A stretch of 48,579 nt of DNA from Lachnospiraceae bacterium A4 (GTDB lineage Bacteria; Bacillota; Clostridia; Lachnospirales; Lachnospiraceae), in assembly GCA_000403215.2 (NCBI GenBank), contig KE159547.1, positions 1 to 48,579 on the forward strand, written 5' to 3'. The notes beneath the pieces are model-generated. The model was not told the DNA's origin. It did no database searches and was given only the letters and a program-made list of their open reading frames with translations. Shown one piece after another: positions 87-44,460 of the stretch. The position numbers were made by a program, and so were the translations under genes. The stretch's first letter is position 1. Each line of letters opens with the position of its first letter.

Positions 87-118
87 GACGCATTATGCCG
101 AATTCGGCATAATGCGTC
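87..118. repeat. Perfect 32-bp palindrome at the element/parA junction
   Basis: The 16-base arms GACGCATTATGCCGAA and TTCGGCATAATGCGTC are perfect reverse complements with no spacer. The site lies where ParA homology stops (codon 41-42) and the RIT-like end begins. By analogy with the core at 39461-39486 (9-bp arms around 8 bases) it would be the recombination core of that element, with arms around a symmetric CGAATTCG centre. This is inferred, not shown. Confidence 0.6.
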
Positions 119-238: not shown

Positions 239-267
239 GATACCACCTCTTTGCATTGTTTTTTCAT
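235..267 (-). CDS. Possible 10-residue leader peptide overlapping parA
   Basis: On the minus strand, AAGGAGG is followed after 4 bases by an ATG reading [10 protein letters not shown] and a TGA that overlaps the parA ATG (ATGA). The Shine-Dalgarno sequence is better than the one for parA, so the peptide could couple translation into parA. It is too short for any homology argument and could be chance. Confidence 0.25.
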
Positions 268-295
268 ATAGCCTCCTTAAATTCTGGCAGGAGAC

Positions 296-335
296 GAAAA
301 AAGGGAGAATGTGACGTAAATGTACATTCTCCCTT
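296..335 (-). terminator. Rho-independent terminator
   Basis: A 12-bp stem (AAGGGAGAATGT at 301-312 with its complement at 324-335) encloses an 11-base loop. On the minus strand it is followed by a run of T (296-302). It would stop transcription coming from the right before it reaches parA, consistent with a lost gene upstream. Confidence 0.6.
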
Positions 336-461
336 GGAAACGATATGCGATTGTATGTTTATCTGCCATTTGAGAGGCTGCTTGTCCGAGAGCCATCCCG
401 CCGCAAACCCGCATGAATACTGGATTTTTGCTTGTTTGCCTATACCTTTCCTAAACAATCA

Positions 462-1694: not shown

Positions 1695-2094
1695 AATATC
1701 TCACTGCGCTTTTAAAAACAATTCCTTAGAAAGCAGTAATTTTTGACTGCCTTGAGAATTGTGGCATATGATAGCGTCAATGAACGAAATCGTTGTGCGA
1801 TGGCTTGATGAAGCTGTGGCACAGCGATTTTATTCAATTGCAGTTTGTATGTGATGTAGAAAACATAATACTATAAGTGAGTAAATTTGAAATCTTGCAT
1901 ATATTTGTCCGTCCAAAAACGACAGATTTGAGGTTTGGGACTTGCTTTGTCCGCAAACGAAATATAAAATGCAGAATCCTTTGTGTAATTTTCTGGATTT
2001 ACTTAATTACAGAATCTATAGACCATAACTGCAACGATAACTAAAAAAATATAAATTCCTGAAAAAAATATGCTTGTTAAATTGTATTATAAAC
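1695..2094. other. Intergenic, no gene recognised
   Basis: It contains an imperfect hairpin (AATTCCTTAGAAAGCAG at about 1721, paired with CTGCCTTGAGAATT at about 1748) just behind the recombinase. A small GCTGTGGCACAGC hairpin lies near 1811. A 28-codon frame at about 1769-1855 has no ribosome binding site. An attachment-site remnant for the serine recombinase would be expected in this position, but I cannot identify one. Confidence 0.4.
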
Positions 2095-2425
2095 AGAGGT
2101 GAATAGTATGCAGGAAAATAAAATAGAGGACGCTGTAAGAGAATATACTCAAATGGTTTTGAATATTGCCTATACATATACTAAAAACTCGCACGATGCC
2201 GAAGACATAGCACAAGATGTTTTTTTATCATTATATAGAAATATGTGGAAAATAGGTTCAGATGAATACATGAAAGCATGGTTAATGAAACAGTTATAAA
2301 TCCCCCAGCAGAGCTGGGGAGACTAACAGATGCCGGAGGCGGTGAGCAGAGTATCAAAATAGAAAACTCCGCTGTATAATGAATGCAGGTCTGGCAAACC
2401 GCATCATATACAACGGAGGTGTCCA

Positions 2426-2839
2426 ATGGACGATTTAAGTTTAGCACATAGCAAGTATAATTGCACGTACCATATTGTATTTATTCCAAAATATCGTAAG
2501 AAAGCGATGTTTGGAAGCTTGAGAAAGGAAGTAGGGGAAATTCTCGGTAAAGTATGTAAAATGGAGGAAGTCACGATCATAAAAGCGGCGACACTGCCTG
2601 ATCATGTGCATATGTATGTATCAATTCCGCCCAAATTAAGTGTATCAAAGACGATAGGGAGAATCAAGGGAAAAAGTGCACTGATGATATTTGACAGGCA
2701 TCCAGAATACCGCGAGAAATACAATCGACATTTTTGGGCAAGAGGATACTATTGTGAAACGGTAGGTAACGTAAATGAGGAAACGATTAAGAAGTACATC
2801 AGTGAACAGTATGAACGAGACCATATGGAGGGCGAATAA
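2426..2839 (+). CDS. tnpA: IS200-type Y1 (HUH) transposase TnpA
   Basis: The protein has 137 residues, the usual IS200 TnpA length (130-150). The metal-binding HUH motif is in LPDHVHMYVSIP (about residues 54-65). The candidate nucleophile tyrosine is in the C-terminal helix (IKKYISEQ, about residue 126). The N-terminus YNCTYHIVFIPKYRKKAMF is classic for the family. GGAGGTG lies 6 bases before ATG. It cuts and joins single-stranded DNA at the end hairpins during replication. Nothing suggests it is inactive. Confidence 0.92.
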   Translation: MDDLSLAHSKYNCTYHIVFIPKYRKKAMFGSLRKEVGEILGKVCKMEEVTIIKAATLPDHVHMYVSIPPKLSVSKTIGRIKGKSALMIFDRHPEYREKYNRHFWARGYYCETVGNVNEETIKKYISEQYERDHMEGE

Positions 2840-2854
2840 GCAAGGTAACAGAGA

Positions 2855-2960
2855 GCCGCTTTTAAGCGGCCACCAGTAACAAGACAATGGCTTACTGAAC
2901 CTCCTTTAGGCGGAAGAGTAACAAGACAATGGTTTGTCAGACCGCCTTTAGGCGGAAAAG
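2855..2960 (+). repeat. Tandem hairpin repeats at the IS200 right end
   Basis: Two and a half imperfect units of about 42 bp follow tnpA. Each has a small GC hairpin (CCGCTTTTAAGCGG, CCTCCTTTAGGCGG, CCGCCTTTAGGCGG) and the shared string AGTAACAAGACAATGG. A GGCCCCGTAGGGCC hairpin and the right-end hairpin follow. IS200 right ends normally carry one structured hairpin, so this tandem array is unusual. Confidence 0.7.
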
Positions 2961-3297
2961 TAACATCGGCCCCGTAGGGCCAACAGCAAACCACCAGCAG
3001 GGCTGGTGGTTCGTGACTTAAGAGTGACAATTAACAAGTCTAAAAACCACATGAAAACTGCATGGATTAGAAAAAGGAGTGAAATGCCAAATGTACAGCA
3101 AGATTTGCCTACAAATGAAACAGGTGATTTATTAAATGCTGTATTATCCTTGGATGTAAAATACAAGATTCCGATTTATTTGATGTATTATGAAGGATAT
3201 TCAATTAAAGAAATTTCGGAAATTGTAAAAATAAAACCTGCAACAATCGGAACTAGATTGAAAAGAGGAAGAGAAATTCTTAAAACTTTGTTAGGAG

Positions 3298-4173
3298 ATG
3301 ATTATTTTGCCGAATAAAAATGAGAAATATGTAAAAGAGATGAATAGCCTTATATTCTCTCATGATATAGAAGAACAGATAATGAGCAATATTTTAAAGC
3401 ACAAGAAAAAAAATATTAATATATATATATATATGGTAGCTTTGATTACAATTTTTGTATGCATTATTGTGATTAGATACATTAATGTTCCTAACAAAAT
3501 GAAGAGTGAATTTTTATGCGAAGAAGATATTGAAAAGATAGGTTATGTAAGTAATGTAAAAGAGTTTAAGATCGATGTGAATAATAATATTGATAATCTT
3601 GAAATTTGTCCTAATCAAATGGTAATTCTAAATATCCAAAATATTCAATGCGAAACAAGCTCCATTTTCCTAAAAGGTCATCTGGTGGGCGATGATAGAG
3701 AGTATTCGCTTGGATATATTGTGGATAAAAAATATACAGAAGTGTTATCGGATTGTACAGAAGAATTTGTTAGTAATGAGATGGATATAAAAGACGGAAC
3801 GGAGTATAGTTTATATATTATCAACTGCTCCAATAAAATATTGACGTTTTCAGGAAATGTTTTCGCAAATCTAGATGATTTGATTTATCATGATTATGGA
3901 AATGAATCATTGCGAGTCGAGGAAAACAGCAACATTATAATAGATTTAAGTGGGTTAAGCAATTCCCGCGACATTGAAGGTATATATGTATATAATTGTA
4001 TTACCCGACAAACAGTTAAATTTCAGTTTTCAAGACTAATAGAATATGAAAGTCAACAGGAAGGAATTTACCTCGTATATGCGATGACAGTTCAGGGGGA
4101 AATAATAGACTTATCAAAATATGTTACGATTGAATATAGCATAAATGAGGGCAATGGTATTATTGGACTATGA
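3298..4173 (+). CDS. Single-pass membrane protein, probable anti-sigma factor
   Basis: Up to 291 residues, with a hydrophilic N-terminus of about 45 residues, one transmembrane segment (IYIYMVALITIFVCIIVIRY) and a 220-residue exported domain without a recognised fold. The gene overlaps the sigma factor 3' end by about 20 bases. AGGAG at 3293-3297 fits a TTG start at 3307 better than the ATG at 3298. Position, topology and overlap match membrane anti-sigma factors that hold an ECF sigma at the membrane. The outer domain may be the sensor. No anti-sigma zinc motif is visible, so the call rests on context. Confidence 0.6.
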   Translation: MIILPNKNEKYVKEMNSLIFSHDIEEQIMSNILKHKKKNINIYIYMVALITIFVCIIVIRYINVPNKMKSEFLCEEDIEKIGYVSNVKEFKIDVNNNIDNLEICPNQMVILNIQNIQCETSSIFLKGHLVGDDREYSLGYIVDKKYTEVLSDCTEEFVSNEMDIKDGTEYSLYIINCSNKILTFSGNVFANLDDLIYHDYGNESLRVEENSNIIIDLSGLSNSRDIEGIYVYNCITRQTVKFQFSRLIEYESQQEGIYLVYAMTVQGEIIDLSKYVTIEYSINEGNGIIGL

Positions 4174-4803
4174 TTATTTATAGAAGCTTTCTTCTATAAT
4201 AATAAAAAAACAAAAGGAGGAACAACATATGTTCAAAAAATCAAATCAATTGCAGCATTAGTTATGGCAGGAGTTCTTATACTAGGGCAGAATTCGTTTG
4301 CTTATGCAAAGGAGGAGGTTAACAACTTAACACCTTATCAGGAAAGGCTTATATTGCTAAATGATGAGCTGGGCACTGATTATGTCTTATCGCCAACGGG
4401 AGATACTACGTATGATGAAATGGTAACATTTTATACTAATATGTCATTAGATGAATTTGAGGAATATATTAGGGATGCATATGTGGCAGAGCAGGCGTTT
4501 GACAAAGTGGTAGCACAAGAAACAGAAATGAGAAAGGATGATGATGCAGTAGGTTATTCAACTCTTGAGAAGTAGAAATATTAATATTAATATGCAAGTA
4601 ATGCTAACTATTTGTATATTAATGCCTATACAACAACAGTTAGTGGAAGTACAATTTACACTGGAGATATAAGTTCAGCAGGGTCTTCAATTTCTTCTTA
4701 TCCAGCGTATAAGGCTAATTCGTATTCATCGTCATTTTCTGATGATAAAAAGACAGTAGATATTAGTTATAGTTGTGTAAAATGTGTATCTCAAAATTTA
4801 ATA

Positions 4804-6412
4804 CTGGTGAGTTGTAAGTTATCAATAAAAAAATAACCCTTCCATATGGTTTTATGGTATCCTATAAGTTGCCAAAATAAAAAAGGATAAATCCACCAGA
4901 AGAGTTATTTCAAATATGAGTTTATCATACTTGCTGGCGGATGACCATACGACTATGTTAAATATTATTGAAAAGATTTTATGCCATTTTGAATCCTGTT
5001 TTTCCCGTAAAGCTGCTTTCCGTTGGTTTGTGATCATCATCACAGGGCTTATGCTCCGTTCGGATAAGCTTGGTGTCACTTCCATACTTCGTGACCTTGC
5101 CCTTGCCCCGGGCTGCTATGATTCCATGCTTCACTTTTTCAGGGCATCCTCATGGTCATTAGAGGATATCCGAAAACGCTGGTTCTCTGCTGTCAGACTG
5201 TATGCGCCCCTTTACAAGGAAGGGAACTTCCATGTCCTTGTTGGTGACGGGGTAAAGCAGTCAAAAGAAGGACGCCGTATGCCGGGGGTGAAGAAGCTAT
5301 TCCAGGAATCCGAGAATTCTGCAAAACCAGAATACATGCATGGGCATATGTTCGGCGGGCTTGGCATACTGGCCGGGAACTTCCGCAGCTGGGCGTGCAT
5401 CCCCTTAAGCATCCGGCTCCATGACGGGCTCCAGGCTGCCAGGGAATGGAAAGGCGCATCTGTTTCAACTGCCTCTCATGTGGTACAGATGGTGGAGGAT
5501 TCTTATCATGCCGCCCTCACTTTTGGAGACTCCCTGCTCCTGCTGGACAGGTATTTCCTTACTGTGCCAGCCCTTGAAAAACTCAGGGAATTAAACAACA
5601 GCGGGAAAGTACACATGGAAATCGTCACCAAAGCCAAAAAGTCCTGTACCGCGTTCCAAAAGCCTGGTCCCCGAAAACCTGGCAGGGGCAGGCCGCCCAA
5701 AAAGGGGGATGCCGTTCACCTGAAAGGACTGTTCGCCTCCCATAAGGAACAGTTCATGGAAACGGAAACCGAACTCTATGGCAAAAAGAAAACGATACGC
5801 TATTACAGCATAGATCTTCTTTGGGGGCAGAAGCTGTACCAGGAACTGCGGTTTGTACTGGTAGAAATGGATGGCATCCAGAGCATTCTGGCAAGCACCA
5901 GTCTGGCACTTGATCCGCTATCCATTATCCGGCTTTACAGCTACCGTTTCCGGATCGAATGCACATTTCGTGAACTGAAACAGCAGACAGGCGCATTCTG
6001 TTATCACTTTTGGTCAAAGCACATGCCGAAACTAAGCTACTACCAAAAGAAAGGGGAACCCACACCCTTAGAGCGTGTGGAGGATGAAAGATCACGTAAA
6101 AAAATACTGAAAACGGTACGTGCCATTGAAGTGCATATGGAACTGTCCTGCATCGCAATGGGGATACTACAGACCCTTTCCATCCGTTTTATTGGAAAGG
6201 TTTGTTCCAGTCAGATCCGTTACCAAAGGACACCATCCAAAGGAAGGGTTTCCGAAGCAGCCCTTATGCACTATTTCCGGAAACATTTTTTCCGCCTTTT
6301 GGAGCAAAAGCCTAAATCATACATAACACAGATAATTCATGAGCTACAGGAAGAGTCAGAAAAACACTGGGATTTTCTGGCTTCTTAGTGGTACAAACTT
6401 TTAACTCACAAG
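4804..6412 (+). mobile_element. IS4-type insertion sequence, copy 1
   Basis: It is about 1609 bp with imperfect terminal inverted repeats (left CTGGTGAGTTGTAAGTTAT, right reading inwards CTTGTGAGTTAAAAGTTTG). It is flanked by TTTAATA at 4797-4803 and 6413-6419, a 7-8 bp target duplication. Deleting the IS and one copy restores the host frame. A related but not identical second copy lies at 35172-36782. Confidence 0.85.
4916..6388 (+). CDS. IS4-family DDE transposase
   Basis: A 490-residue transposase. Candidate catalytic residues are the D in LVGDGVKQS (about residue 108), the D in LLLLDRYF (about 205) and the E of YSYRFRIECTFRELK (about 345). That last motif is the Y-(2)-R-(3)-E-(6)-K signature of IS4 transposases. 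A lysine-rich insert (PGPRKPGRGRPPKKG, about residue 247) may bind DNA. The gene starts ATG 4916 with a weak ribosome binding site, as is common for IS genes. The frame is intact and about 80 percent similar to the copy at 35285-36757, by eye. Confidence 0.9.
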   Translation: MSLSYLLADDHTTMLNIIEKILCHFESCFSRKAAFRWFVIIITGLMLRSDKLGVTSILRDLALAPGCYDSMLHFFRASSWSLEDIRKRWFSAVRLYAPLYKEGNFHVLVGDGVKQSKEGRRMPGVKKLFQESENSAKPEYMHGHMFGGLGILAGNFRSWACIPLSIRLHDGLQAAREWKGASVSTASHVVQMVEDSYHAALTFGDSLLLLDRYFLTVPALEKLRELNNSGKVHMEIVTKAKKSCTAFQKPGPRKPGRGRPPKKGDAVHLKGLFASHKEQFMETETELYGKKKTIRYYSIDLLWGQKLYQELRFVLVEMDGIQSILASTSLALDPLSIIRLYSYRFRIECTFRELKQQTGAFCYHFWSKHMPKLSYYQKKGEPTPLERVEDERSRKKILKTVRAIEVHMELSCIAMGILQTLSIRFIGKVCSSQIRYQRTPSKGRVSEAALMHYFRKHFFRLLEQKPKSYITQIIHELQEESEKHWDFLAS

Positions 6413-6619
6413 TTTAATATATGATACCAAATATACAATCAATGTAACTTATGGAGCAGGTGCAGAAAATATATATCCAGTAATATGACAGTAAAATATT
6501 ATGTTGAGAAATATTTTTAAAAATCCAGTTACTTATGTGTTATAGTGGAGTAAGGAATTTTTTACTTATTGAGACTAAATGGATATATGTGTATCATAAG
6601 TATAGAGGTGTTTCTGGAT

Positions 6620-6654
6620 AAAGCAGGGATTCGAGAGAGTCCCTGCTTTTTTTG
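6620..6654 (+). terminator. Rho-independent terminator
   Basis: The stem AAAGCAGGGA / TCCCTGCTTT (6620-6629 and 6640-6649) is followed by a T run. It closes the secreted-protein locus. The conjugative-element debris starts just after it. Confidence 0.8.
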
Positions 6655-6698
6655 TTGAGCGTAAATTTAAATTCATCACTTGACAATGTTGCATAGAA

Positions 6699-6881
6699 TT
6701 GATGAGCCAAGATGAGATTGCAGTCATGGACGGAGGAAAGTGCATCATGCAGCTTAGAGGGGTAAGACCGTTCTTCTCCAATAAGTTTGACATCACGAAG
6801 CATAAACAGTACCGCCTTCTGTCCGATTTTGACGACAAGAACGCTTATATGCCAAAGCAAAAAGAGAGGGCTTTTCTGTAA
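6699..6881 (+). pseudogene. VirD4/TraG coupling protein, C-terminal fragment
   Basis: MSQDEIAVMDGGKCIMQLRGVRPFFSNKFDIT... ending in YRLLSDFDDKN is the characteristic C-terminus of the VirD4-type coupling ATPase of Tn1549-like clostridial conjugative elements. Some 500 upstream residues, with both Walker motifs, are missing. The fragment runs directly into primase sequence in another frame, so a deletion fused two distant genes of the same element. Confidence 0.75.
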
Positions 6882-8730
6882 AGGAAATCTGTTCAATTCA
6901 TCACTATCGTTACAAGGATGCGGAGGGAAAGAAACTTTATGACAAGTACCGCATTGACTATATTTCGGATGGTGGGAGGAAAGAAAAGCATATATCGCAG
7001 GGCGTGGAAAAGGATGGATATATACGGAAATTCAGGCAAGGGGAATATCAGTCCTGCATTGTCATGTACGGCGATTTCCGGCAGTACCAGGCAGGGGAAA
7101 GGGTGTACATACCAGAGGGCGAAAAGTGCGTTGATGTCTGCCATGCAAATAGGGCAGAGAATGTTGTAACGGCTGGCAGTTCCAATGATTGGAAATCTAA
7201 GGGAAAAAAGTTTGCCGCATTTTTCAAGGGTACGGATATTGTCATATTGCAGGATAACGACAAGGCAGGGGAAAACCTCACAAGGGATATTATATCATCT
7301 TTAAACGGCGTGGCGGCATCTATCAAAGTGGTTGTCCCGGACAAAAGCAGGGATAACGCGGATATTGCAGATTTCTTTTCAAATGGCGGCACATTGCAGC
7401 AGTTGGAAGAAATGATTGAGGAAACGCCTTGTATCAATGAATCCGTTACAAAACAAAAGGATGCTGGCCGTCCTGTTATTCCACAAGGGCAGCAGAACAA
7501 ACATTTAGAACAGGCGATAAGGGATTTACACGCTGAACAGTACGAAACATCAGATAAGGGATTTGGGCGGCTGTTTGCGGATGTATTTAAGGACAAGCAC
7601 AGATATAACCCATCACGAAAAGATTTTATGCGGTATGACGGTAAACGGTGGATTGATGATATTGAGGGGGTGAGTGCGAGGGCATCAGCAAAAGCCCTGT
7701 CGGATGCACTTGTGAGATATGCGGTAAATGTTGATACAGAGGGAAAATATCTGAAAGCAGTAGCGGCATTATGTAATATCAGGAACCGGAACAATATGCT
7801 TCAGGACAGCAAGGACGTATATTTTTTCAGCAATGAGCAGTTAGATGTGAATGATTATTTTTTGAATTTGCAGAACGGCACACTTGATTTGTCCGGGGAT
7901 AAGCCTGTATTTTTGAGCCACAGCCCCGATATGCTTCTTTCAAAGATATGCAGCGCTGAATATAACCCTGCTGCCGATTGCAGGGAATGGAAAAAGTTTT
8001 TACTGGAAATCATGCAGGGTGATACGGAGAAAACGCTGTATCTCCAAAAGATAGCAGGGCTTTCACTGACGGGGAACACAGAGCGGGAAACGTGTTTTAT
8101 CCTCTTTGGGAGTACCACACGGAAAAAGTACATTTTGTGAAACCATCATATATTTGTTGGGTGACTATGCCTTGACAATGAAGCCGGAGAGTTTAGCAGT
8201 AAAGCAAAATCTTGATAGCAGACAGGCGAGCGGAGATATAGCACGACTGGCAGGGTGCAGGTTCTGCAATGCCAGTGAGCCGCCAAAACGGATGTTATTT
8301 GACACAGCATTATTAAAGTCATTGTTAGGCAGGGACAGCATTACGGCAAGGCATTTACACCAAAGGGAATTTAGCTTTATCCCTAAATTTAAACTTGTGA
8401 TAAATACAAATTATCTGCCAACGATTACGTGCTACGGATACTTATAGGATAGACAGTGACAAGATAGGAAATTTTATCAATGAATGTCTGACAAAGACAG
8501 AGCAAAACAGCAAGGCAAAAGATATTTACGATGTTTATTCAAAGTGGTGCGAGGAAAACGGCTTCGGAGTGGAAAACAAGTCAAATTTCTTTGCAGAACT
8601 TAAAACAAAGGGATTGTTTGCGAATAGTGGGACAGTAGACGGAAAGACCGTAAAAAATATAGTAAAGGGCTATACCGTGGAAACAGAATTTATTGAGTAT
8701 AGAGGGCAGGAATCACTACCGTTTGACTAA
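6870..8730 (+). pseudogene. P4-type primase-helicase, truncated and doubly broken
   Basis: From about 6870 the frame reads GFSVKEICSIHHYRYKDAEGK, then a TOPRIM domain (PEGEKCVDV and VILQDNDKAGEN), then a D5/P4-type SF3 helicase start. At 8125-8140 the expected FGSTTRNGKSTF Walker A has lost 5 bases (reads GSTTRK then shifts), destroying the ATP site and frame. The next frame (8130-8430) ends at INTNYLPTIT. A second junction then skips part of the helicase and resumes as RATDTYRIDSDKIGNFINECL to the stop at 8730. The N-terminal part is also missing. It would have primed and unwound element DNA for replication. It is inactive now. Confidence 0.85.
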
Positions 8731-8740
8731 GAAAAATCCC

Positions 8741-8827
8741 AAAATGTGCAAAATGTGCAAAACAAATGTAAAAACCCTATAAGGAATGAATTTCAGAATG
8801 TCCCATGTAAAATGCACATTTTGCACA
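8741..8827. repeat. 15-bp inverted repeat with an internal 9-bp tandem
   Basis: TGTGCAAAATGTGCA at 8745-8759 is perfectly complementary to TGCACATTTTGCACA at 8813-8827. The left arm is itself a tandem of AAAATGTGC (8741-8749 and 8750-8758). No T run follows, so a terminator is unlikely. It may be an operator, an iteron remnant or an RNA stem ahead of the gene at 8940. Function unknown. Confidence 0.6.
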
Positions 8828-8939
8828 AATCCAGTAAAATCAAGGGTTTCAAGCACTTTAGCAAAATGAAGTGTGTAAAATGGATGTAAGGAATTTTATG
8901 TTTTTTGGTAATCAGGCAGACAAATTGAAAGGAGAAATT

Positions 8940-9356
8940 ATGGCAAAGGTAAAAGAAGTTTGGGTAAGATTCAGCGACACGGAAACCTATTATGAGAAAG
9001 AGGGAGAGTTGCTTTCAATTCTTGCCAATGCATCAGGAGATTGTGTTGTAAAGGTGTACATAGAGAATATCAGAAGCTGCAAAGAATTACATGATATGTC
9101 TTTCGACAAAGAACAGCTTTCTCTGCTTACCGATGCTTTTGGTGAAGAAAATGTAAGGTATCAGGAGAGAGAAATCAAAACGGAGATTAAATGGAGCAGG
9201 CCAACGGAAGTACCTAAAATCAAGCAGCTTCTCCCTTGTAGGCATGATATACTTGGAATTTCCCCATTGGATGAAGCTGTCTATGATGTGTGTGGATATG
9301 AATTAGAGGGCGGCGAGATATGGCCGGAGGCAGGAAAGCCGGATGAACAGAAATAA
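8940..9356 (+). CDS. Element-encoded protein of unknown function
   Basis: 138 residues starting at ATG 8940 after AAAGGAG (7-base spacing). The N-terminal two thirds (VWVRFSDTETYYEKEGELLSIL...VVKVYIENIRSCKEL...LLTDAFGEENVRY) resemble, only weakly by eye, the small C-terminal domain of bacterial replicative DNA polymerases, where a short chain also pairs values with VKVY. I would not rely on that. It overlaps the next gene by 14 bases and follows the primase, so a role in replication of the conjugative element is plausible. GC and codon use match its neighbours. Confidence 0.7.
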   Translation: MAKVKEVWVRFSDTETYYEKEGELLSILANASGDCVVKVYIENIRSCKELHDMSFDKEQLSLLTDAFGEENVRYQEREIKTEIKWSRPTEVPKIKQLLPCRHDILGISPLDEAVYDVCGYELEGGEIWPEAGKPDEQK

Positions 9357-9597
9357 AATTATCAGTTTAGCGGATGCGCCGGGGCTGCCTGCTGCCAGTA
9401 TGGCATTTTATGACCGATACCGGGAGCGGATCACTGGCATTGAAAGTGTGGAGCAGAGGAACAATATTCTTTCTGAAATGCAGCAGGATTTTGAAAGAGA
9501 GGTAAGGCAGGAGCCGCAGAACCGGGATAAGCTGTCGGAGGTTTACCAGTTGCTAAAGCGGAAATGTTGGGAGGTTGGCTTATTTGGTAACGAATGA
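9343..9597 (+). CDS. Small helical protein, unknown
   Basis: 84 residues, MNRNKIISLADAPGLPAASMAFYDRYRERITGIE..., predicted mostly helical and charged. The start overlaps the end of the preceding gene and the end overlaps the next one, so the three genes are translationally coupled. Similar small proteins lie beside primases in clostridial conjugative elements, but I know no function for them. Confidence 0.65.
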   Translation: MNRNKIISLADAPGLPAASMAFYDRYRERITGIESVEQRNNILSEMQQDFEREVRQEPQNRDKLSEVYQLLKRKCWEVGLFGNE

Positions 9598-10003
9598 AGA
9601 ATTGAAAAAAATCTATGGAATGTTCACGGACGCATGGAAATTTTACAAGAAATATGCAGGCATACAGCAATCAGAAGATGAGAGATGGCAGCAGTTGGTT
9701 GATGAATCCGGGCAGATAGCAAAGAAGTATGATAATGCGAAACTGGCGATTGCCTTATTACTGGCGGCTATTGATGAACTGGAAAGGAAAAGCAAGATCC
9801 TGAAAGTGGCCTGCAAAGGGCTTGAAGCTATTTCGCCGTGGATTCTGCTATCTGTCAGACAGGGCAAGTCTTTTGACACTCTGGCGGTGCGGTGGGAACT
9901 GGGGGAGATAGAAAAGCCGCCATTTTGCAGGACTGATTTTTATTCGTGCAGGCGGCGGTTTTTCGCCAATTTGGATAAGGAACTGAAAGAAAGGGGCGCA
10001 TAG
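9584..10003 (+). CDS. Element-encoded helical protein, unknown
   Basis: 139 residues if begun at TTG 9584, which has GGAGG 9 bases upstream. A TTG at 9575 is in frame but sits on the ribosome binding site. The N-terminus VTNEELKKIYGMFTDAWKFYKKY... is a conserved pattern in clostridial element genes. The C-terminal half holds LAVRWELGEIEKPPFCRTDFYSCRRRFF. No catalytic motif is seen. The next gene starts 2 bases after the stop, so the run is one operon. Confidence 0.65.
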   Translation: MVTNEELKKIYGMFTDAWKFYKKYAGIQQSEDERWQQLVDESGQIAKKYDNAKLAIALLLAAIDELERKSKILKVACKGLEAISPWILLSVRQGKSFDTLAVRWELGEIEKPPFCRTDFYSCRRRFFANLDKELKERGA

Positions 10004-10004
10004 C

Positions 10005-10535
10005 GTGAAGTCATACAAATTTGATATTGAGAGCATAAAGAAATTGACAAAACAAATGGTTGTTCTGATTGATACGAGGGAGAAGCGGAACGAACACATA
10101 TTGTCATATTTCGATAAGCAAGGGATTACATACCGAAAAGAAAAACTGGATTTTGGGGATTATACTTTTCTGCTGCCCTCTGCCGCAACCGGGCAGGGAG
10201 ATATATATTTCCATGATTCGATTGTGATTGAACGAAAAGCCAGTTTAGAAGAATTATCCGGCAATTTGGCACAGAAACGGCAGCAGTTTGAAGCGGAATT
10301 TTTGAAAGCCAGGAACGCCGGAGCGAAAATATATTTGATGGTTGAGGATATGGGCGGCTATTCCTCTATCATTTCCCACAAGTATAATACACAGCTTACG
10401 CCCGTTTCTTTTATGTCAAGCCTGAAAACGTGGGAGAGCCGTTTCGGATGCAATGTGCAGTTCATAGATAGCCAGTACAGCGGATATTTCATATACAGCA
10501 CATTTTCCTATTTCTGCCGGGAGGTATTGAAATAG
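10005..10535 (+). CDS. ERCC4-type nuclease
   Basis: 176 residues from GTG 10005, which follows AGGGG. The ERCC4/XPF nuclease signature is complete: VLIDTREKR (about residue 24), LDFGDYTF (about 50), IVIERKASLEELSGNL (about 75-90). The acidic residues of D-T-R-E, G-D-Y and E-R-K bind the metal. Such stand-alone nucleases are common in phage and conjugative elements and cut branched DNA, but their role there is not settled. The gene is intact amid broken ones and is the last gene of the run from 8940. Confidence 0.88.
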   Translation: MKSYKFDIESIKKLTKQMVVLIDTREKRNEHILSYFDKQGITYRKEKLDFGDYTFLLPSAATGQGDIYFHDSIVIERKASLEELSGNLAQKRQQFEAEFLKARNAGAKIYLMVEDMGGYSSIISHKYNTQLTPVSFMSSLKTWESRFGCNVQFIDSQYSGYFIYSTFSYFCREVLK

Positions 10536-10662
10536 CCAGTGGCAGCAGGCCGCATTTGAAAAGAGGGTGCATCTATTCAGCGGCAGGGGCGCAGCGGAAT
10601 TATCGGCAGGGGATATGTGGTTATTGTGTAACGTGGCGCAGTAACTACGGAAAGGAAATATT

Positions 10663-11285
10663 ATGTTTTGTGTTATTCAGGAAATGAATGTAAAAAAATC
10701 TGATAAAGGTGGATATGCAAAGGAACTGAAATCGGAATATTTATCAATTATTTTCAATGGGGAGGACATAGGGCATTACTGGCATTTCTACGGCAACGAA
10801 AGATTTGAACGGCCAGTAAAGAAAGCCTACCGCATAAGCATACATCACAGCTTCAGGAAAAACGGATAAGTCCAAAAGAAGCAGTTTGCATTATGCACAG
10901 TGAATTATTATGATTTGGCAACGGATTTTTTCAGCTTGTATGATTGGTGCAATAGTAAAATAAATTTGGCAGCAGAGGGATTGTCTGCAAGCGTTGATGA
11001 AATTTATGAACTTGTTGAAAAGAAAATCGAACCGTTGATAGATAAAATTCAAGGTGAGTTCCATGAAACCGAAGAATATAAAACACATGAAAAGCACGAA
11101 AAAATAACTACGATATATGCGGCTAAGAAAGCACAGTTCCTAACTACAATGAAGCTGACAAGGCCATGTTAAAAAAGTTCTACCGCACATTATCAAAGGC
11201 ATTTCACCCGGACAGTAACCCGGATAAGGACACAAGCGGGGAAATGAAGATGCTGAACCGCCTGAAAAGCGATTGGGGAGTATAG
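10663..11285 (+). pseudogene. J-domain-like element protein, broken
   Basis: MFCVIQEMNVKKSDKGGYAKEL...AYRISIHHSFRKNG is the N-terminus of a family found in clostridial conjugative elements. A TAA at 10867-10869 replaces a conserved lysine. The same frame then continues KKQFALCTVNYYDL to about 11130. A deletion or frameshift follows, and the C-terminal YNEADKAMLKKFYRTLSKAFHPDSNPDKD with the J-domain HPD motif ends at 11285. At least two lesions make it a pseudogene. The J-domain suggests a DnaK partner, of unknown purpose in the element. Confidence 0.75.
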
Positions 11286-38394: not shown

Positions 38395-38784
38395 CTGAAT
38401 TTAGGAGTAGAACAGGAAACATTTTTCCATTTTGGAAGATATCGTTATTGCAATTATTTGCAACATAAATTAAAATGAATCTGTGGCAACATTTTGGCAA
38501 CAGAAAATCAGCAAGCCATTATAAATGATGTAATTGAAGTAAAAACAGGCGTGTATTTGCATAAAAATTAAACAAATATAGTTAATAGCAACAAAGAACA
38601 CGCCGAGTTCGAGTAACGGATAAAATCCCGGAAATGCTGATAAAATGGGAATTTCCGGGATTGCTTTATGCCTGTTGGCTCTAAAATGGCTCTAATTATT
38701 TGATGAATACTGGATTTTGGGCGGGTATCATGATACCTGCTTTTTTAATACAGAGGAATTTCGCCCTCATAGTTGTCGGCTCTT
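38395..38784. other. Right margin of the mobilizable element, no gene seen
   Basis: It contains a 12-bp hairpin (AATCCCGGAAAT 38624-38635 with 38651-38662, no T run), AGGCGTGT/ACACGCC flanking arms, GGCAACATTTTGGCAAC (about 38484), GAGTTCGAGT (38605) also found at 22129, TGGCTCTAA twice at about 38678-38695, and a 16-base word ATGAATACTGGATTTT also found at 413. These suggest integrase sites or junction debris, not a gene. Confidence 0.4.
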
Positions 38785-39459
38785 TCGTAAACGGTAGATA
38801 GTGCGTACCTATACAAAACTGGAGCAAACCTGTAAGATAGAAACAGATTTGCTCCAGTCTTATTTCAATTCATTCTTACCAGTCTTCCGGCAGTTCTCCG
38901 GCAGGCTTGGTGACCAGGGGAGCAGGTCATCCAGAAAACTGCGGTCTGTATCATCCAGATGTTTGGGAATCTCAGTAAGCAGAAATTCAAAGTAATCATA
39001 CGGCTTCAAGTTGTTTGCTTTTGCAGTTTCCGCAATGCTGTAGATAATGGCGCTGGACTTTGCGCCGGCAATGGTATCGATCATCACCCAGTTTTTCTTG
39101 CCGATGCAGAATCCGCGGATGGACTGTTCCGCAGCGTTATTGTCCATCGGCACTTCGCCATCGTCCAGGAACACTTTCAGGTATTTCTCCTGGTTCAGGG
39201 AATAATTGAAACCTTCCCACGTCTTGCTTTTTTGCGGCACTTTCGGAAGGTTTTCACGAACCCATGTGAAATAAGCCTCCACCAGGGGCTTTACGCTCAG
39301 CTGGCGGCGGTTTTTCCGTTCTTCCGCCGGGAGATCTTTTAACTGTTTTTCCTCCCGGTAGATCGCCTGTATCATGGTCAGCGCAAGATATGCGCGGCTG
39401 TCCTTCTGCTTTGCTTTCGGCAGCGCTTTTACTGCTTCATCAAACCTGCGCCTGGCATG
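38785..39459. repeat. Left arm of the 675-bp inverted repeat
   Basis: Every position pairs with its mirror about the axis at 41210 (position sums 82420), the partner being 42961-43635. I counted about four mismatches by eye, so identity is over 99 percent. The outer limit coincides with the IS66 terminal GTAAACGG. The inner limit is CATG next to the recombination core. Confidence 0.9.
38860..39459 (-). pseudogene. tnpC: IS66 TnpC C-terminal fragment, left copy
   Basis: The frame reads HARRRFDEAVKAL...LAVKPLVEAYF-type sequence, then MDNNAAEQSIRGFCIGKKNW with the catalytic E of IS66 TnpC, and the family tail (YDYFEFLLTEIPKHL). The front two thirds, with both aspartates, are missing. It is cut exactly at the CAT of His-Ala-Arg-Arg-Arg-Phe, where the RIT core begins. 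It faces its mirror copy at 42961-43560. Inactive. Confidence 0.88.
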
Positions 39460-39460
39460 C

Positions 39461-39486
39461 GACTTATTCGAGAACTGGAATAAGTC
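39461..39486. other. Putative recombination core, left copy
   Basis: GACTTATTC and GAATAAGTC are complementary 9-bp arms around the 8-base GAGAACTG, the geometry of a tyrosine-recombinase core (two binding sites around a 6-8 base crossover). An identical copy in the same orientation is at 42934-42959, although the flanks are mirror images. Confidence 0.65.
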
Positions 39487-39631
39487 CCATTATCCCAGAA
39501 GTATTGTTATTCCAGAAGCAAGTCTACATATGGCATAAATGTTGTTTTTTACAGCATATTTCTTGAATAATGATAGTGCTCTTTTACAATGAAGATGTAA
39601 CTAATTCATCTCATTATAAAGGAGGTCTCAT

Positions 39632-40855
39632 ATGAGAAATACAATCTTACCATTCGATGAACTGATGAAAGCAGTTCTGGAGCAATTAAAATCTCAGAAA
39701 TATATGGATTCAACGTTGACCGTATATCGGCGAACCTACAATCGCATTCACATTTTTCTGAATCATCATGGCACGGACATATACACTCATGAATTAGGCA
39801 AAGCATTTCTTGCCGATTCAAATGTTAGCAAATCCACCTTTGTAGCTTATGCCTGTGCAGTACGAAGGCTGGATGACTACATTGACGGAAAACCTTACAG
39901 GTGCCATCATGGTGATTATAACGAACAGATTCCTCTGGTGTTTGCGGGCACTTTGTCTGGGTATCTTCAAGAATGCATAGATAATGGCAATAAACCGGCT
40001 ACGATCTGCTCAAAAGAAAGGACCTGTATATCTTTTTTGAGCTTTGTGGAAAATGCTGGTTGTTCTGACCTTTCTCAATTAAACACCGGCATTGTATCAC
40101 AGGCCCTGCTTACATTCTCCAACAAGGATGCCTATGCACGTATCCGTCAGTTCCTGAATTACCTTGCTGAAAAAGGCATCCTAGAAGTGGATCTTTCCAG
40201 GATTGTTCCGCACTATAAGAGAGGTACGGCGCTTCCCACGACATATACGCCAGATGAAATCAGCAGGGTCGAAGCTTCTGTTGATACCAATACTACTATT
40301 GGAAAGAGAAACCTTGCTATCATCCGGCTGGCATCACGAATGGGACTCCGTGCAGGCGACATTGCAAAGCTTAAACTATCGGAAATCAACTTTAGTACGG
40401 GATACATCAGTATAACCCAGGAAAAGACGGGGATACCTCTCACATTGCAAATGCCTTGTGAAGTTGTTAATGCCATTTCGATGCATCTTGGCAATGACAA
40501 ATACTCTTTAGAAGACGGGTATGTATTTCATAGCCTGACGGCTCCGTATGGACGTATTACTACAAGCATAATACGACACGCTTTAAATGAATGCTTTGCT
40601 GCAGCAAATGTCAATACAGCAGGGAAAAAGCATGGTCCACATGCATTTCGGTCATCCCTTGCAAGTTCAATGGTAAACGATAATGCATCTTATGAGGTAG
40701 TCAGAAGAATCCTGGGACATTCAAATTCTGATGTTATCAAGCATTACGCTAAAGCAGATATTGAAAATCTGAGGATGTGTTCTATAGATCCTCCGATTCC
40801 TACAGGGATTTTCCGTGATTATCTTTCCGGCAAGGGGGTGGTCACCCATGTTTGA
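39632..40855 (+). CDS. RIT tyrosine recombinase A
   Basis: 407 residues, AGGAGG before ATG. N-terminal SAM-like domain (LPFDELMKAVLEQLKSQKYMDSTLTVYRRTYNRIHIFL). Catalytic domain with R in MGLRAGDIAKLKLSEI (about 236), HAFR in HGPHAFRSSLASSM (about 335), LGHSNSDVIKHYAKAD with the nucleophile Y (about 370). First of three genes overlapping by 8-11 bases, so the proteins are probably made in fixed ratio and act as one complex. The upstream 120 bases hold the promoter inside the element end. Confidence 0.88.
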   Translation: MRNTILPFDELMKAVLEQLKSQKYMDSTLTVYRRTYNRIHIFLNHHGTDIYTHELGKAFLADSNVSKSTFVAYACAVRRLDDYIDGKPYRCHHGDYNEQIPLVFAGTLSGYLQECIDNGNKPATICSKERTCISFLSFVENAGCSDLSQLNTGIVSQALLTFSNKDAYARIRQFLNYLAEKGILEVDLSRIVPHYKRGTALPTTYTPDEISRVEASVDTNTTIGKRNLAIIRLASRMGLRAGDIAKLKLSEINFSTGYISITQEKTGIPLTLQMPCEVVNAISMHLGNDKYSLEDGYVFHSLTAPYGRITTSIIRHALNECFAAANVNTAGKKHGPHAFRSSLASSMVNDNASYEVVRRILGHSNSDVIKHYAKADIENLRMCSIDPPIPTGIFRDYLSGKGVVTHV

Positions 40856-41825
40856 TAGTATTTATTCAGAACAGTTATCACAGTATTACGGTCTGCGTCA
40901 GGAAACATTGAGTGAAAGCGCAGGGAAACACGAATTATGCTATCTGCGCCGCTTTGATTCGTATGTTTCTGAACAGTTAGATTCCCCCGGACACATCACG
41001 GAAGATTTCATCAACCAATGGGTTGGTTCCCTTTCGGGAAAAAGCAGTTCTGTGGAGAATGAAATCATTGTAATACGACAGTTCCTGGAGTTTCTCAAGC
41101 ATACCGGAGAAAATGCTGCCATGCCTTCCATACCCAGGGTTCATGATGACTATGTCCCATATATCTTTAGTGATACGGAGTTGAATTGTATTTTCGAGTC
41201 TGCTGATAACATCGTTCAAAAGGATCCAAAGGCTGATCCTTATCTGGTGATAGAGTTTCCGGTGATTCTCAGGCTTTTATACAGTTGTGGCCTTCGAATC
41301 GGTGAAACGGTCAAAATAAATATGAATGATGTAGATCTGGATGGCGGCATCCTCCGCCTTATAAACACAAAGGGCAATAAGCAGCGTTTAGTCCCGATGT
41401 CAGCGCCCATGACAGATATTCTATACAAGTACTGCATGGCAATGAACCTTACCGGCAGAAACAACATATGGCTTTTCCCGTCCTCTAAAAATGAGGGACA
41501 TATATCCGACAGATCAGTAAAGCGCAGATTTGAGTACATTCTTCATAATAATGGCATTCAAGTCTATAGCCGAAAGAAACACGAGCGTGGTCCATGCCTG
41601 CATTGTATGCGCCATGTGTTTGCGTTTAAATCGTTTGCAAAGGCCGAACGGGAAGGAAGGCATCTTGATGACGCTGTCCCATTCTTGTCTGTTTATCTCG
41701 GACATGCAGGCATTAATGAAACGGCCAAGTACCTAAAATTCAGTAATGAATTGTTTCCGGAGGCCATCGATTCCTTTGGCAGATTTATGAGCGACCTGCT
41801 TCCGGAGGTGGGCTATGAAGAATAA
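40848..41825 (+). CDS. RIT tyrosine recombinase B
   Basis: 325 residues from ATG 40848, overlapping gene A by 8 bases, with GGGGGTGG upstream. Catalytic residues: R in SCGLRIGETVKIN, HCMRHVFAFKSF, LGHAGINETAKYLKFS with Y. The typical insert between the H-box and the tyrosine is longer than in XerD. A and B-type proteins of RIT elements belong to different subfamilies, as seen here by their distinct H-boxes. Confidence 0.88.
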   Translation: MFDSIYSEQLSQYYGLRQETLSESAGKHELCYLRRFDSYVSEQLDSPGHITEDFINQWVGSLSGKSSSVENEIIVIRQFLEFLKHTGENAAMPSIPRVHDDYVPYIFSDTELNCIFESADNIVQKDPKADPYLVIEFPVILRLLYSCGLRIGETVKINMNDVDLDGGILRLINTKGNKQRLVPMSAPMTDILYKYCMAMNLTGRNNIWLFPSSKNEGHISDRSVKRRFEYILHNNGIQVYSRKKHERGPCLHCMRHVFAFKSFAKAEREGRHLDDAVPFLSVYLGHAGINETAKYLKFSNELFPEAIDSFGRFMSDLLPEVGYEE

Positions 41826-42837
41826 AAAAATTTCCTTCATGAATCACCTTGAGTGTTATTTCAATACATATTTACCAACTGTAAAGGGCTTATCACAATC
41901 AACGATAGTTTCGTATAAAGCAACATTCCGTATACTCATGGAATTCTTATATACAGTAAAAGGTATTCCCTCTGATAAGGTGGAGTTCAGTACCCTTGAT
42001 GATAAGTTGATCATGGAGTTCTTAAGCTGGTTGGAAACAGAGCGAAGCTGCAGTGTCAGCACCAGAAACCAGAGGCTCTCTGCTATTGCAGCATTCTCGA
42101 TATATGCACAGAATAGAGATTTTGGTTCAGCAGTTACTTTCAGAAACTGTGTACTAAAAGTTCCAAAGAAGAAAGCGCCCCGCAAAGGCAGAAGCTCATT
42201 CACAAGGGATGAAGTCAAGACTCTATTCGGATTACCCGATTCAAGTAATGAAATCGGATTAAGAGACAAGACTTTGCTGTGTTTTATGTATGCTAGCGGG
42301 ACAAGGGCACAGGAGGTATGTGATTTAACAGTTGGGAATATCCAGTTCTATCCTGATCGAGCCGGTATCAACATACATGGTAAAGGTCAAAAGGTGCGCC
42401 GTATAGGTATTCCATGTGATGCTTCAAATATGTTGAAGAAGTATATTGAACATCGTAGAATAATCAATGATACAGAGCGGCATGTGTTCTCAAGTCAGAC
42501 ACATGAGAAGATGTCAGTTTCCTGTATTGAGGAAATATACTCCAAGTACATTGAGAAGGCAAAACAAGAGTATCCTGAAATGTTCAGATATCATTACACG
42601 CCACATTCCATGAGGCATACTACTGCCACCCATATGATTGAAGCAGGGGTTCCTCTTATTGTGGTTAAGAACTTTCTCGGGCATGTATCCTTGCAGACCA
42701 CTCAGATATATACAGAGATAACGCAGGATACCATGAACAAACAGCTTAAATCGTGGAATGACAAATGGTTTCTCAAGGATAATTCTCATTTTGAAAACAC
42801 GAATGGCAAAAGTAATATACCGGAATTCTTAAGGTAA
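41815..42837 (+). CDS. RIT tyrosine recombinase C
   Basis: 340 residues from ATG 41815, overlapping gene B by 11 bases. XerD-like: LECYFNTYLPTVKGLSQSTIVSYKATFRILMEFL, R in YASGTRAQEVCDL (about 163), PHSMRHTTATHMIEAG (about 265), LGHVSLQTTQIYTEI with Y (about 300). All three proteins keep the full R-H-x-x-R-H-Y set, so all could be catalytic. Confidence 0.88.
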   Translation: MKNKKISFMNHLECYFNTYLPTVKGLSQSTIVSYKATFRILMEFLYTVKGIPSDKVEFSTLDDKLIMEFLSWLETERSCSVSTRNQRLSAIAAFSIYAQNRDFGSAVTFRNCVLKVPKKKAPRKGRSSFTRDEVKTLFGLPDSSNEIGLRDKTLLCFMYASGTRAQEVCDLTVGNIQFYPDRAGINIHGKGQKVRRIGIPCDASNMLKKYIEHRRIINDTERHVFSSQTHEKMSVSCIEEIYSKYIEKAKQEYPEMFRYHYTPHSMRHTTATHMIEAGVPLIVVKNFLGHVSLQTTQIYTEITQDTMNKQLKSWNDKWFLKDNSHFENTNGKSNIPEFLR

Positions 42838-42867
42838 AAGTAGTTATTGTTATTCGGGATTTAAATC

Positions 42868-42905
42868 GGAGAACTGCCGATTTACGCTGATGTTGGCAGT
42901 TCTCC
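42868..42905 (+). terminator. Hairpin ending the trio operon
   Basis: The 11-bp perfect stem GGAGAACTGCC (42868-42878) with GGCAGTTCTCC (42895-42905). There is no T run, so it may not terminate well. Its arms contain GAGAACTG, the same octamer as the centre of the recombination core, and lie 3-40 bases from the right terminal repeat. It could therefore be a recombinase site. Confidence 0.5.
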
Positions 42906-42960
42906 TAGAATAACAATACTTCTGGGATAATGCGACTTATTCGAGAACTGGAATAAGTCC

Positions 42961-43560
42961 CATGCCAGGCGCAGGTTTGATGAAGCAGTAAAAGCGCTGC
43001 CGAGAGCAAAGCAGAAGGACAGCCGCGCATATCTTGCGCTGACCATGATACAGGCGATCTACCGGGAGGAAAAACAGTTAAAAGATCTCCCGGCGGAAGA
43101 ACGGAAAAACCGCCGCCAGCTGAGCGTAAAGCCCCTGGTGGAGGCTTATTTCACATGGGTTCGTGAAAACCTTCCGAAAGTGCCGCAAAAAAGCAAGACG
43201 TGGGAAGGTTTCAATTATTCCCTGAACCAGGAGAAATACCTGAAAGTGTTCCTGGACGATGGCGAAGTGCCGATGGACAATAACGCTGCGGAACAGTCCA
43301 TCCGCGGATTCTGCATCGGCAAGAAAAACTGGGTGATGATCGATACCATTGCCGGCGCAAAGTCCAGCGCCATTATCTACAGCATTGCGGAAACTGCGAA
43401 AGCAAACAACTTGAAGCCGTATGATTACTTTGAATTTCTGCTTACCGAGATTCCCAAACATCTGGATGATACAGACCGCAGTTTTCTGGATGACCTGCTC
43501 CCCTGGTCACCAAGCCTGCCGGAGAACTGCCGGAAGCCTGGTAAGAATGAATTGAAATAA
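42961..43560 (+). pseudogene. tnpC: IS66 TnpC C-terminal fragment, right copy
   Basis: Same 200-codon fragment as the left copy, inverted (HARRRFDEAVKALPRAKQKDSRAYLALTMIQ ... MDNNAAEQSIRGF). It differs at one residue near the end (CRKPGKNELK against CRKTGKNELK). Internal ATG starts exist, but there is no catalytic aspartate pair. IS66 also needs TnpA and TnpB, which are absent. Confidence 0.88.
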
Positions 43561-43635
43561 GACTGGAGCAGATCTGTTTCTATCTTACAGGTTTGCTCCA
43601 GTTTTGTATAGGTACGCACTATCTACCGTTTACGA
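42961..43635. repeat. Right arm of the 675-bp inverted repeat
   Basis: Mirror of 38785-39459 about axis 41210. It ends at the IS66 terminal sequence (reading inwards GTAAACGG). The 8 bases outside the two arms (GCTCTTTC and GATTAAAC) do not match, so there is no target duplication and a simple composite transposition is not supported. Confidence 0.9.
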
Positions 43636-43679
43636 TTAAACGACTTCGGTGCATTAATTAAAAACGAAGGGAGAGAAGA

Positions 43680-43874
43680 TTGAGTATACAGAGATTCTAT
43701 AATGGTTATAGGATTGATGTTTCATGGTGTGATAAAACTTTGGGATTTCAGTTTACCATTTATGATAAAGATGGTAAAAAGGTTTCAGGTAGTATTGACC
43801 CATATTGTTTTGAAGAGTATGCATTGATGGAGGCTATACAGAAAGTTGACGCTATTATTGGGAGGGGTGATTGA
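43680..43874 (+). CDS. Small protein opening an unknown operon
   Basis: 64 residues from TTG 43680, with GAAGGGAGAG upstream: SIQRFYNGYRIDVSWCDKTLGFQFTIYDKDGKKVSGSIDPYCFEEYALMEAIQKVDAIIGRG. It reads like a compact beta-sheet domain with a C-terminal helix. Unknown family. It overlaps the next gene, and the run 43680-46702 is one operon. Confidence 0.6.
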   Translation: MSIQRFYNGYRIDVSWCDKTLGFQFTIYDKDGKKVSGSIDPYCFEEYALMEAIQKVDAIIGRGD

Positions 43875-44460
43875 TATTAATAAGAAATGTGTTGCTTTAA
43901 GTCAGGAAGAATATCAAAGAAGCATAGAATTGTTGCGCAATGGTTTTATGCTTTCTGGGGTACTGGTAAAACCGAATGAGCGTATTGCGACTATCGAGGT
44001 ACTCCAAGCAACTTTAGGATTAAGACTTGGAGATATTTTAAAGCTAAAGTTATCAAGCTTCATTCGTGACGGCGACAGATATCGTTTGGATATCAGGGAA
44101 GAGAAGACTGGCAAGATACGTAATTTTACAGTGCCTAATGAGGTATATTCATTCGTGCAGGACTATTGCATAGAAGGGGGTATCTCAAAAGATGCTAAGT
44201 TGTTTGACATTTCCAAAAGGCAGGTAGAGCGTCACTTGAATAAGGTGTTTATGAAGATGGAACTTCCTCTCCGCAGTTACGGCAGTCATTCTTATCGTAA
44301 GTTTTTTGCTACAAAAGTTTATACTGATAGTGAGTTTAATGCAGAGCTGGTGCGCGTGTTGCTTCAGCACTCAAGTTTAAATACTACACAGAGATACTTG
44401 AGTATCGGCACAAAGCAAATAGAAGATGCATTAGCAAGAACAGTCAGTAATTTGATATAG
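43867..44460 (+). CDS. Minimal tyrosine recombinase
   Basis: About 197 residues, catalytic domain only: IATIEVLQATLGLRLGDILKLKLSSF (R), then SYGSHSYRKFFATKVY (H-x-x-R), LLQHSSLNTTQRYLSIG (H and Y). It lacks the core-binding N-terminal domain, like the invertase-type recombinases that regulate fimbriae. GTG 43867 or a nearby ATT is the likely start; GGGAGG lies just before. Its targets are unknown. No inverted pair was found nearby. Confidence 0.75.
   Translation: MIDINKKCVALSQEEYQRSIELLRNGFMLSGVLVKPNERIATIEVLQATLGLRLGDILKLKLSSFIRDGDRYRLDIREEKTGKIRNFTVPNEVYSFVQDYCIEGGISKDAKLFDISKRQVERHLNKVFMKMELPLRSYGSHSYRKFFATKVYTDSEFNAELVRVLLQHSSLNTTQRYLSIGTKQIEDALARTVSNLI

What the first reader, a model, noticed from the sequence alone, without database searches (positions are those of the whole stretch)
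38785..43635. A recombinase-trio element sits exactly on the axis of a 2 x 675-bp palindrome
Seen: the IS66 arms (38785-39459 and 42961-43635), the element's 24-bp terminal repeats (39489-39512 and 42908-42931) and their spacing all share one axis (position sums 82420). Known: RIT elements carry three tyrosine recombinases of unclear mechanism. Inference: the element either chooses the centre of long palindromes or makes the palindrome while integrating, for example by joining sister copies or through a hairpin intermediate. The lack of a target duplication outside the arms argues against an IS66 composite transposon.
Basis: partly seen in the sequence, partly recalled or inferred. Interest (0 to 1): 0.9.

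Follow-up and report, generated by a model that had tools for sequence, protein, structure and literature searches.

The report
Recombinase trio joining two IS66 halves
The long palindrome is real in the sequence, but it is best explained as two copies of one insertion sequence, each carrying the same recombinase-trio element, that became joined through that element; the element does not seek palindromes, and the comparison gives a testable model of how such elements move.

Summary
In detail: two 675-bp arms (5 mismatches) share one axis with a complete recombinase-in-trio (RIT) element. The arms are 3' halves of two IS66 copies. The element does not choose palindromes: an identical copy (0 of 3480 differences) elsewhere in the genome sits in an ordinary IS66, as do 8 of 12 elements with both flanks assigned (two of the 12 are in this genome). 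They sit at one Trp|x-His site of tnpC. A 20-bp core travels with the element and ends up on the IS66 3' side in either orientation. Every assigned junction joins an IS66 5' side or core half to a RIT end or IS66 3' side (0 exceptions). The window is 3'-core-RIT-core-3', the expected joint of two RIT copies inserted in opposite orientations. The same class occurs in complete alphaproteobacterial plasmids, where RIT sits in IS110; Roseomonas plasmids show both parental forms and the recombinant. The right arm's partner half lies on contig C30 (same 8-bp target duplication), also joined to a RIT end. Whether this particular joint formed in the cell or in the assembler cannot be settled here. Known element; junction rule not found in the papers I could read.

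The parts
38779..38786 (.). 8-bp flank of the left IS66 terminus, GCTCTTTC; no partner found in the genome
38787..39458 (-). left arm: 3' half of IS66 copy A (tnpC C-terminal part plus terminal repeat)
39459..39488 (+). left core with its overlaps: GCGAC - TTATTCGAGAACTGGAATAA (39464-39483) - GTCCC
39489..39512 (+). RIT left terminal repeat
39632..40855 (+). ritA, 407 aa tyrosine recombinase, intact R..HxxR..H..Y
40848..41825 (+). ritB tyrosine recombinase; ATG at 40848 overlaps ritA by 8 bp (start read from the sequence)
41815..42837 (+). ritC, 340 aa tyrosine recombinase; overlaps ritB by 11 bp
42908..42931 (-). RIT right terminal repeat
42932..42961 (+). right core with its overlaps: GCGAC - TTATTCGAGAACTGGAATAA (42937-42956) - GTCCC
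42962..43633 (+). right arm: 3' half of IS66 copy B
43634..43641 (.). 8-bp target duplicate GATTAAAC of IS66 copy B; the other copy is on contig C30 beside the IS66 5' half

Best explanation
The window holds two IS66 copies (A and B), each interrupted at the same tnpC codon by the same RIT element in opposite orientations, that recombined through RIT, leaving A 3' half - core - RIT - core - B 3' half. RIT inserts by conservative tyrosine recombination. Its circular form would carry a joint RIT_R - overlap - 20-bp core - overlap - RIT_L with two nearly identical crossover sites in inverted orientation (CTGGAATAA-GTCCCA-TTATCCCAG type, 6-bp overlap). Either site can pair with the target GCTGG-TCSCA-T in tnpC, giving either orientation and always leaving the core on the IS66 3' side. 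Because the target position is fixed, joining two 3' halves gives equal arms on one axis; the arms form a palindrome only because A and B are nearly identical. Shown from sequence: the anatomy, the fixed target, the two orientations, the side rule, the matching target duplications and the recombinant class in complete plasmid records. Inferred: the circle, the crossover chemistry, and that this joint formed in the cell, by homologous recombination within RIT or by site-specific exchange at an overlap.
For: Identical second RIT copy in a non-palindromic IS66. Contig C30 ends in an IS66 5' half joined to the RIT left end, and its outer 8-mer GATTAAAC equals that outside the window's right arm, so they are two halves of one insertion. 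Junction table of 25 stretches: 39 RIT ends = 22 core, 15 IS66 5', 0 IS66 3', 2 unassigned; 46 core halves = 21 RIT, 22 IS66 3', 0 IS66 5', 3 unassigned. Matching 8-mers around 4 of 5 RIT-bearing IS66s in which the scan found both termini (8 elements tried). Same class as the window: G400 and G404 C16; reciprocal 5'-RIT-5' without core: G401; G400 and G401 show a single RIT copy (contigs under 3 kb may be missing). Solo core between two inverted IS66 3' halves in the 6.35-Mb S. arabinosiphila contig. IS110-borne RITs in plasmid records: of 16 loci, 10 ordinary, 4 with like halves on both sides, 2 unassigned. FDAARGOS_362 (5'X-core-RIT-3'X), TT14 (3'Y-RIT-core-5'Y) and HV1/AD1 (5'X-core-RIT-core-5'Y): HV1 matches FDAARGOS_362 over 8830 bp on one side and TT14 over 11,844 bp on the other, overlapping in RIT.
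Against: No read data. The reciprocal joint, or any IS66 5' half for copy A, is absent from the assembly. C30 shows that the ordinary joint B5'-RIT also exists in the sequenced DNA; it ends exactly 35 nt after the point where the RIT left contexts diverge, as an assembly-graph break would. In E. ruminantium an ordinary and a double-core contig carry RIT at the same distance, 3070 bp, from a contig end, which could also be an assembler copying a shared path. The overlap at the two target junctions differs in 3 of 8 ordinary IS66 insertions. The identical copy at C1 has unlike outer 8-mers.
Confidence: 0.6

Rival explanations
1. Assembly join: the genome really has A3'-core-RIT-A5' and B5'-RIT-core-B3', and the assembler walked from A3' through the shared RIT into B3', leaving B5' as contig C30.
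For: C30 carries the missing half of the right arm's IS66 with the same target duplication and ends 35 nt into the shared sequence. A similar pattern is seen in E. ruminantium G404.
Against: It also needs an A5' half, and none is in the assembly. The class is real elsewhere: plasmid records titled complete of Roseomonas AD1, A. cucumeris and A. tumefaciens, and the single-copy G400 element.
Confidence: 0.3
2. Re-insertion: a solo core between two inverted IS66 3' halves existed first, and a RIT circle integrated at the core, so in this narrow sense the element did land at the centre of a palindrome.
For: Such a solo core exists in S. arabinosiphila, with arms about 70% alike over 450 bp, and the junction rule allows RIT to enter there.
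Against: It does not explain the B5'-RIT joint on C30 without a further event. No relative with this site empty was seen, though only the right flank was looked for outside this genome.
Confidence: 0.07
3. One reading: the element prefers palindrome centres, or copies one arm by sister joining or a hairpin during integration.
For: Shared axis and near-identical arms.
Against: Other copies sit in single IS66s; arm likeness in the class ranges from none detected to 98%; the arms differ more than the RIT copies and have different outer target sites.
Confidence: 0.03

Closest known systems
RIT (recombinase in trio) elements
   Same: Three overlapping tyrosine recombinase genes in the order A-B-C, each pairing best with its counterpart in two proteobacterial trios, about 3.5 kb, terminal inverted repeats, found inside a transposase gene (PMC3414803, passages read).
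   Different: Not in the passages read: fixed target codon in IS66 tnpC, tnpB or IS110, the separable 20-bp core with a fixed side, both orientations, double-core, no-core and solo-core forms. [quoted passage not shown]
pdif (xrs) modules of Acinetobacter plasmids
   Same: Sites made of two different binding arms around a short central region, in several copies flanking modules that are thought to be shuffled (PMC11705084, passages read). The alternation of half-site classes seen here resembles it.
   Different: Those use host XerC and XerD. Here the module encodes its own three recombinases and one module is only 20 bp.
Tn916 coupling sequences and SE, Tn554, GInt elements
   Same: Short variable overlap that can differ at the two ends and travel with the element; 6-bp spacer (PMC10214605 section 3 part 1; PMC4321634 passages).
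   Different: SE has two recombinase genes plus two others, GInt three recombinase-like genes plus a fourth; the parts read describe no mobile core segment.

Membership tests
RIT element | Three adjacent overlapping tyrosine recombinase genes ritA-ritB-ritC | tested here: met
   PF00589 in all three; best BLASTP partners A-A, B-B, C-C in both Salipiger and Cupriavidus trios. Overlaps 8 and 11 bp; PMC3414803 gives four to eight, so one is longer
RIT element | Catalytic R..HxxR..H..Y in each recombinase | tested here: met
   motifs located in all three (the position numbers printed there for RitA are of a gapped row)
RIT element | RitA with two sequential core-binding domains (PMC8138268 passage) | tested here: inconclusive
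   Model of mean pLDDT 60 has two four-helix groups, 8-84 and 102-180, ahead of the catalytic part; the catalytic part is poorly modelled and no fold search was run
RIT element | RitC with an extra C-terminal helix (PMC8138268 passage) | not tested
   no model of RitC was made
RIT element | About 3.5 kb bounded by terminal inverted repeats | tested here: met
   39489-42931, 3443 bp, with 24-bp repeats
RIT element | Mobility | not testable with these tools
   Two identical copies in different IS66s imply recent movement or recombination; no assay
IS66 (the arms) | tnpC DDE domain and terminal repeat with 8-bp target duplication | tested here: met
   PF03050 and PF13817; GATTAAAC duplicated when C30 and the right arm are taken together. 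The left arm's partner was not found
IS66 composite transposon | Two complete IS copies with a duplication outside | tested here: not met
   Only 3' halves, outer 8-mers differ

The most novel reading that the evidence does not exclude
RIT elements are two-module systems: the recombinase segment with two ends of one half-site class, and a 20-bp core with two ends of the other class. Any exchange at the 6-bp overlap swaps partners between the classes {target side I, core} and {RIT end, target side II}. This predicts the observed forms: ordinary insertions in both orientations, double-core joints, core-less joints, solo cores, flipped cores, and RIT bodies carrying different cores. On this view RIT is a rearrangement machine that fuses IS halves and replicons, and makes palindromes when the IS copies are alike.
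Probability: 0.5. Interest if true: 0.7.

Novelty: new variant of a known kind. Interest (0 to 1): 0.55.

Why it matters
How three recombinases move a RIT element is open in the passages read (PMC3414803), which found no convincing binding sites at the ends beyond an inverted repeat and a palindrome. The junction rule gives concrete att sites (attP, attB, 6-bp overlap, core) that can be tested in a laboratory strain with two small plasmids. It also explains why RITs sit inside transposase genes at fixed codons and gives a route by which they fuse IS copies or plasmids. The window's palindrome itself is a by-product.

Tried and rejected
Rejected: palindrome preference, sister joining or hairpin, IS66 composite transposon (see rivals). 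Searched and not found: an IS66 5' half or target duplicate for the left arm in the genome; a relative colinear with the window's right flank up to the arm (54 of 397 genomes incl. our own have some match, but no listed match other than our own covers the first 237 bases beside the arm); RIT relatives in viral contigs by protein. Core patterns in viral contigs gave one and the same contig. The first IS66 N-half query was cut to 2 residues by a script slip and redone. The automatic terminal-repeat finder failed for L212 and L216; L216 was then read by eye, L212 stays unassigned. The terminus scan gave nothing usable for L078, L087 and L090. Cupriavidus L206 and Rhodococcus L207 were fetched but their ends were not analysed. 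The RitA model was too weak for a fold search. Literature: the listings showed no paper evidently describing RIT in IS66 or the junction rule; the papers listed were not opened. Two subscription papers (Ricker 2013, looked up and not held; Van Houdt 2009, not looked up) were not read, so parts may already be in print.
Full report
Observation. The window is the whole of contig C21 of a 6.96-Mb, 40-contig genome. The arms are tnpC C-terminal halves of IS66, reading outward and ending at IS66 termini. The three genes between them are a RIT trio.

The same element elsewhere in the genome. A copy identical over 3480 of 3480 bases lies at C1:573649-577128. It has an IS66 3' half on its left and an IS66 5' half on its right, so it is an ordinary insertion, not a palindrome. 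Its two outer 8-mers do not match, the only mismatch among the five RIT-bearing IS66s with both termini found; L079, L081, L085 and L088 match. The scan gave nothing usable for three further elements (L078, L087, L090). Contig C30 ends in an IS66 5' half joined to 35 nt shared with the RIT left side, namely the 5-nt overlap and 30 nt of the RIT end. Its outer 8-mer, GATTAAAC, is the one outside the window's right arm. The right arm's IS66 is therefore split between C30 and C21. No 5' half was found for the left arm.

Relatives. A genome scan with RitC gave 16 loci, by record title mostly Clostridia. A whole-element search counted copies in 12 genomes or records, 11 of them from that scan and one from a viral-contig pattern match. 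Unbroken IS66s show the empty target TGCTGG-TCSCAT-GCG, codons C-W-S-H-A, with both S = C (L134, L136) and S = G (L135); three more of the eight sites printed have TGCTGG with another codon before His, and two were misaligned. In 33 of 37 target flanks the alignment to tnpC starts or ends within 3 nt of the junction; in the other four (37-146 nt away) the position was read by eye. A second group of RITs sits in IS66 tnpB at TDMR or TDLR, again with the core on the 3' side in 6 of 6 junctions read.

Junction rule. In the 25 stretches, 37 of 39 RIT ends and 43 of 46 core halves could be assigned. RIT ends meet the core (22) or an IS66 5' side (15), never a 3' side. Core halves meet RIT (21) or an IS66 3' side (22), never a 5' side. 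The five unassigned are three at contig edges (both ends of G402 and the COE1 C18 core), one tnpB-type site in G405 (whose RIT-core joint is in the counts) and one decayed end. Some stretches repeat one context: the two G404 contigs share the right flank, and COE1 contigs C16 and C18 show the same 5' half. Of 12 elements with both flanks assigned, 8 are ordinary, 3 are 3'-3' with two cores (window, G400, G404 C16) and 1 is 5'-5' with no core (G401). S. arabinosiphila has a core with no RIT between two inverted IS66 3' halves. In G399 the core is flipped relative to RIT. A core pattern built from these sites hit 28 places in 16 of 26 genomes or records, most of them chosen because they hold RIT, against 0 for the reversed pattern.

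Overlap. The five bases next to each half-site differ between insertions and look like target codon context (GTCSC, GGCSC and others). They are the same at the two target junctions in 5 of 8 ordinary elements and in the C30 and right-arm pair, and differ in 3 (COE1 C12, G404 C27, G405). In COE1 C12 and G404 C27 the overlap on the core side equals the one next to the RIT left end in a sister copy (COE1 C15, G404 C16), so there it fits an overlap delivered by the element. In the double-core elements G404 C16 and G400 one side each does not fit this.

A second target and plasmid records. Salipiger RITs sit in IS110 at PYVK|RQKND with a different 20-bp core, again always on one side, here the 5' side, in both orientations. 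I fetched 17 of the 88 plasmid records, chosen by hand from the 40 listed; 16 loci went into (the two-RIT circle pTPRO8 was left out; both its RITs have a core on one side only). Ten are ordinary, four have 5' halves on both sides (Roseomonas HV1 and AD1, A. cucumeris, A. tumefaciens) and two are unassigned (Mesorhizobium, Sphingobium). All four carry two cores. Of these four all but HV1, a linear record, are titled complete; sequencing methods were not checked. HV1 and AD1 share both flanks and probably one event. HV1 equals FDAARGOS_362 over 8830 bp including RIT (2 mismatches) and TT14 over 11,844 bp including RIT (3 mismatches, 1 gap). The parental RIT bodies differ at 1 of 3831 sites, so the exchange point inside cannot be placed, although their cores differ clearly. 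The direction of this change is inferred from the like IS halves in the two ordinary forms.

Arms. Between the two sides of seven such joints, likeness ranges from none detected (HV1, AD1) through 70-73% stretches (G400, G404, A. cucumeris) and 87% over 381 bp (A. tumefaciens) to the window's 98% over 715 bp, core and RIT end included. A palindrome is thus the special case of two near-identical IS copies.

Mechanism. Shown: fixed target, both orientations, side rule, matching target duplications, recombinant forms. Inferred: a circular form with a doubled attP around the core; 6-bp overlap exchange; for the window, recombination of two insertions of opposite orientation. Homologous recombination in RIT and site-specific exchange give the same product and are not separated here. 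The assembly explanation stays open for this contig: C30 stops 35 nt after the point where the RIT left contexts part, and the E. ruminantium contigs show a related pattern.

Known work. PMC3414803 (passages) reports RITs of about 3.5 kb, some in a transposase gene, with an inverted repeat and an overlapping palindromic sequence that did not fit usual att sites; that palindromic sequence is probably the core (inference). PMC8138268, PMC11705084, PMC4321634 and PMC5385486 (passages) and PMC10214605 (section 3 part 1 and passages) give the comparison classes. The side rule and the double-core, core-less and solo forms were not in what I read; two main subscription papers were not available.

Noticed in passing
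L208 (NZ_CP014804.1, pTPRO8) 1-11188: An 11-kb circular record is an inverted pair of RIT::IS110 loci with 4280-bp arms (99.4%), one arm 100% like pTPRO7 and the other 100% like pTPRO2, with no replication gene annotated: a chimeric assembly or a recombination circle.
   Followed up: partly
G000:C1:572979-579281: The ordinary IS66::RIT copy has unlike outer 8-mers, so its two IS66 halves may come from two insertions.
   Followed up: partly
L192 (G398:C111) 4431-4524: A second RIT right end joined to an IS66 5' half at a contig end, while only one left context is assembled; the window's genome shows the mirror case.
   Followed up: partly
L221 4977-4996 and L222 11835-11854: Nearly identical RIT bodies carry clearly different 20-bp cores, hinting that cores are exchanged independently.
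   Followed up: partly
43846-44460: A short tyrosine integrase ORF lies right outside the right arm.
   Followed up: no
1-48579: The contig is a mosaic of mobile DNA: a serine recombinase, several DDE transposases, an IS110, a Mob_Pre relaxase and an ABC/FtsX pair.
   Followed up: no
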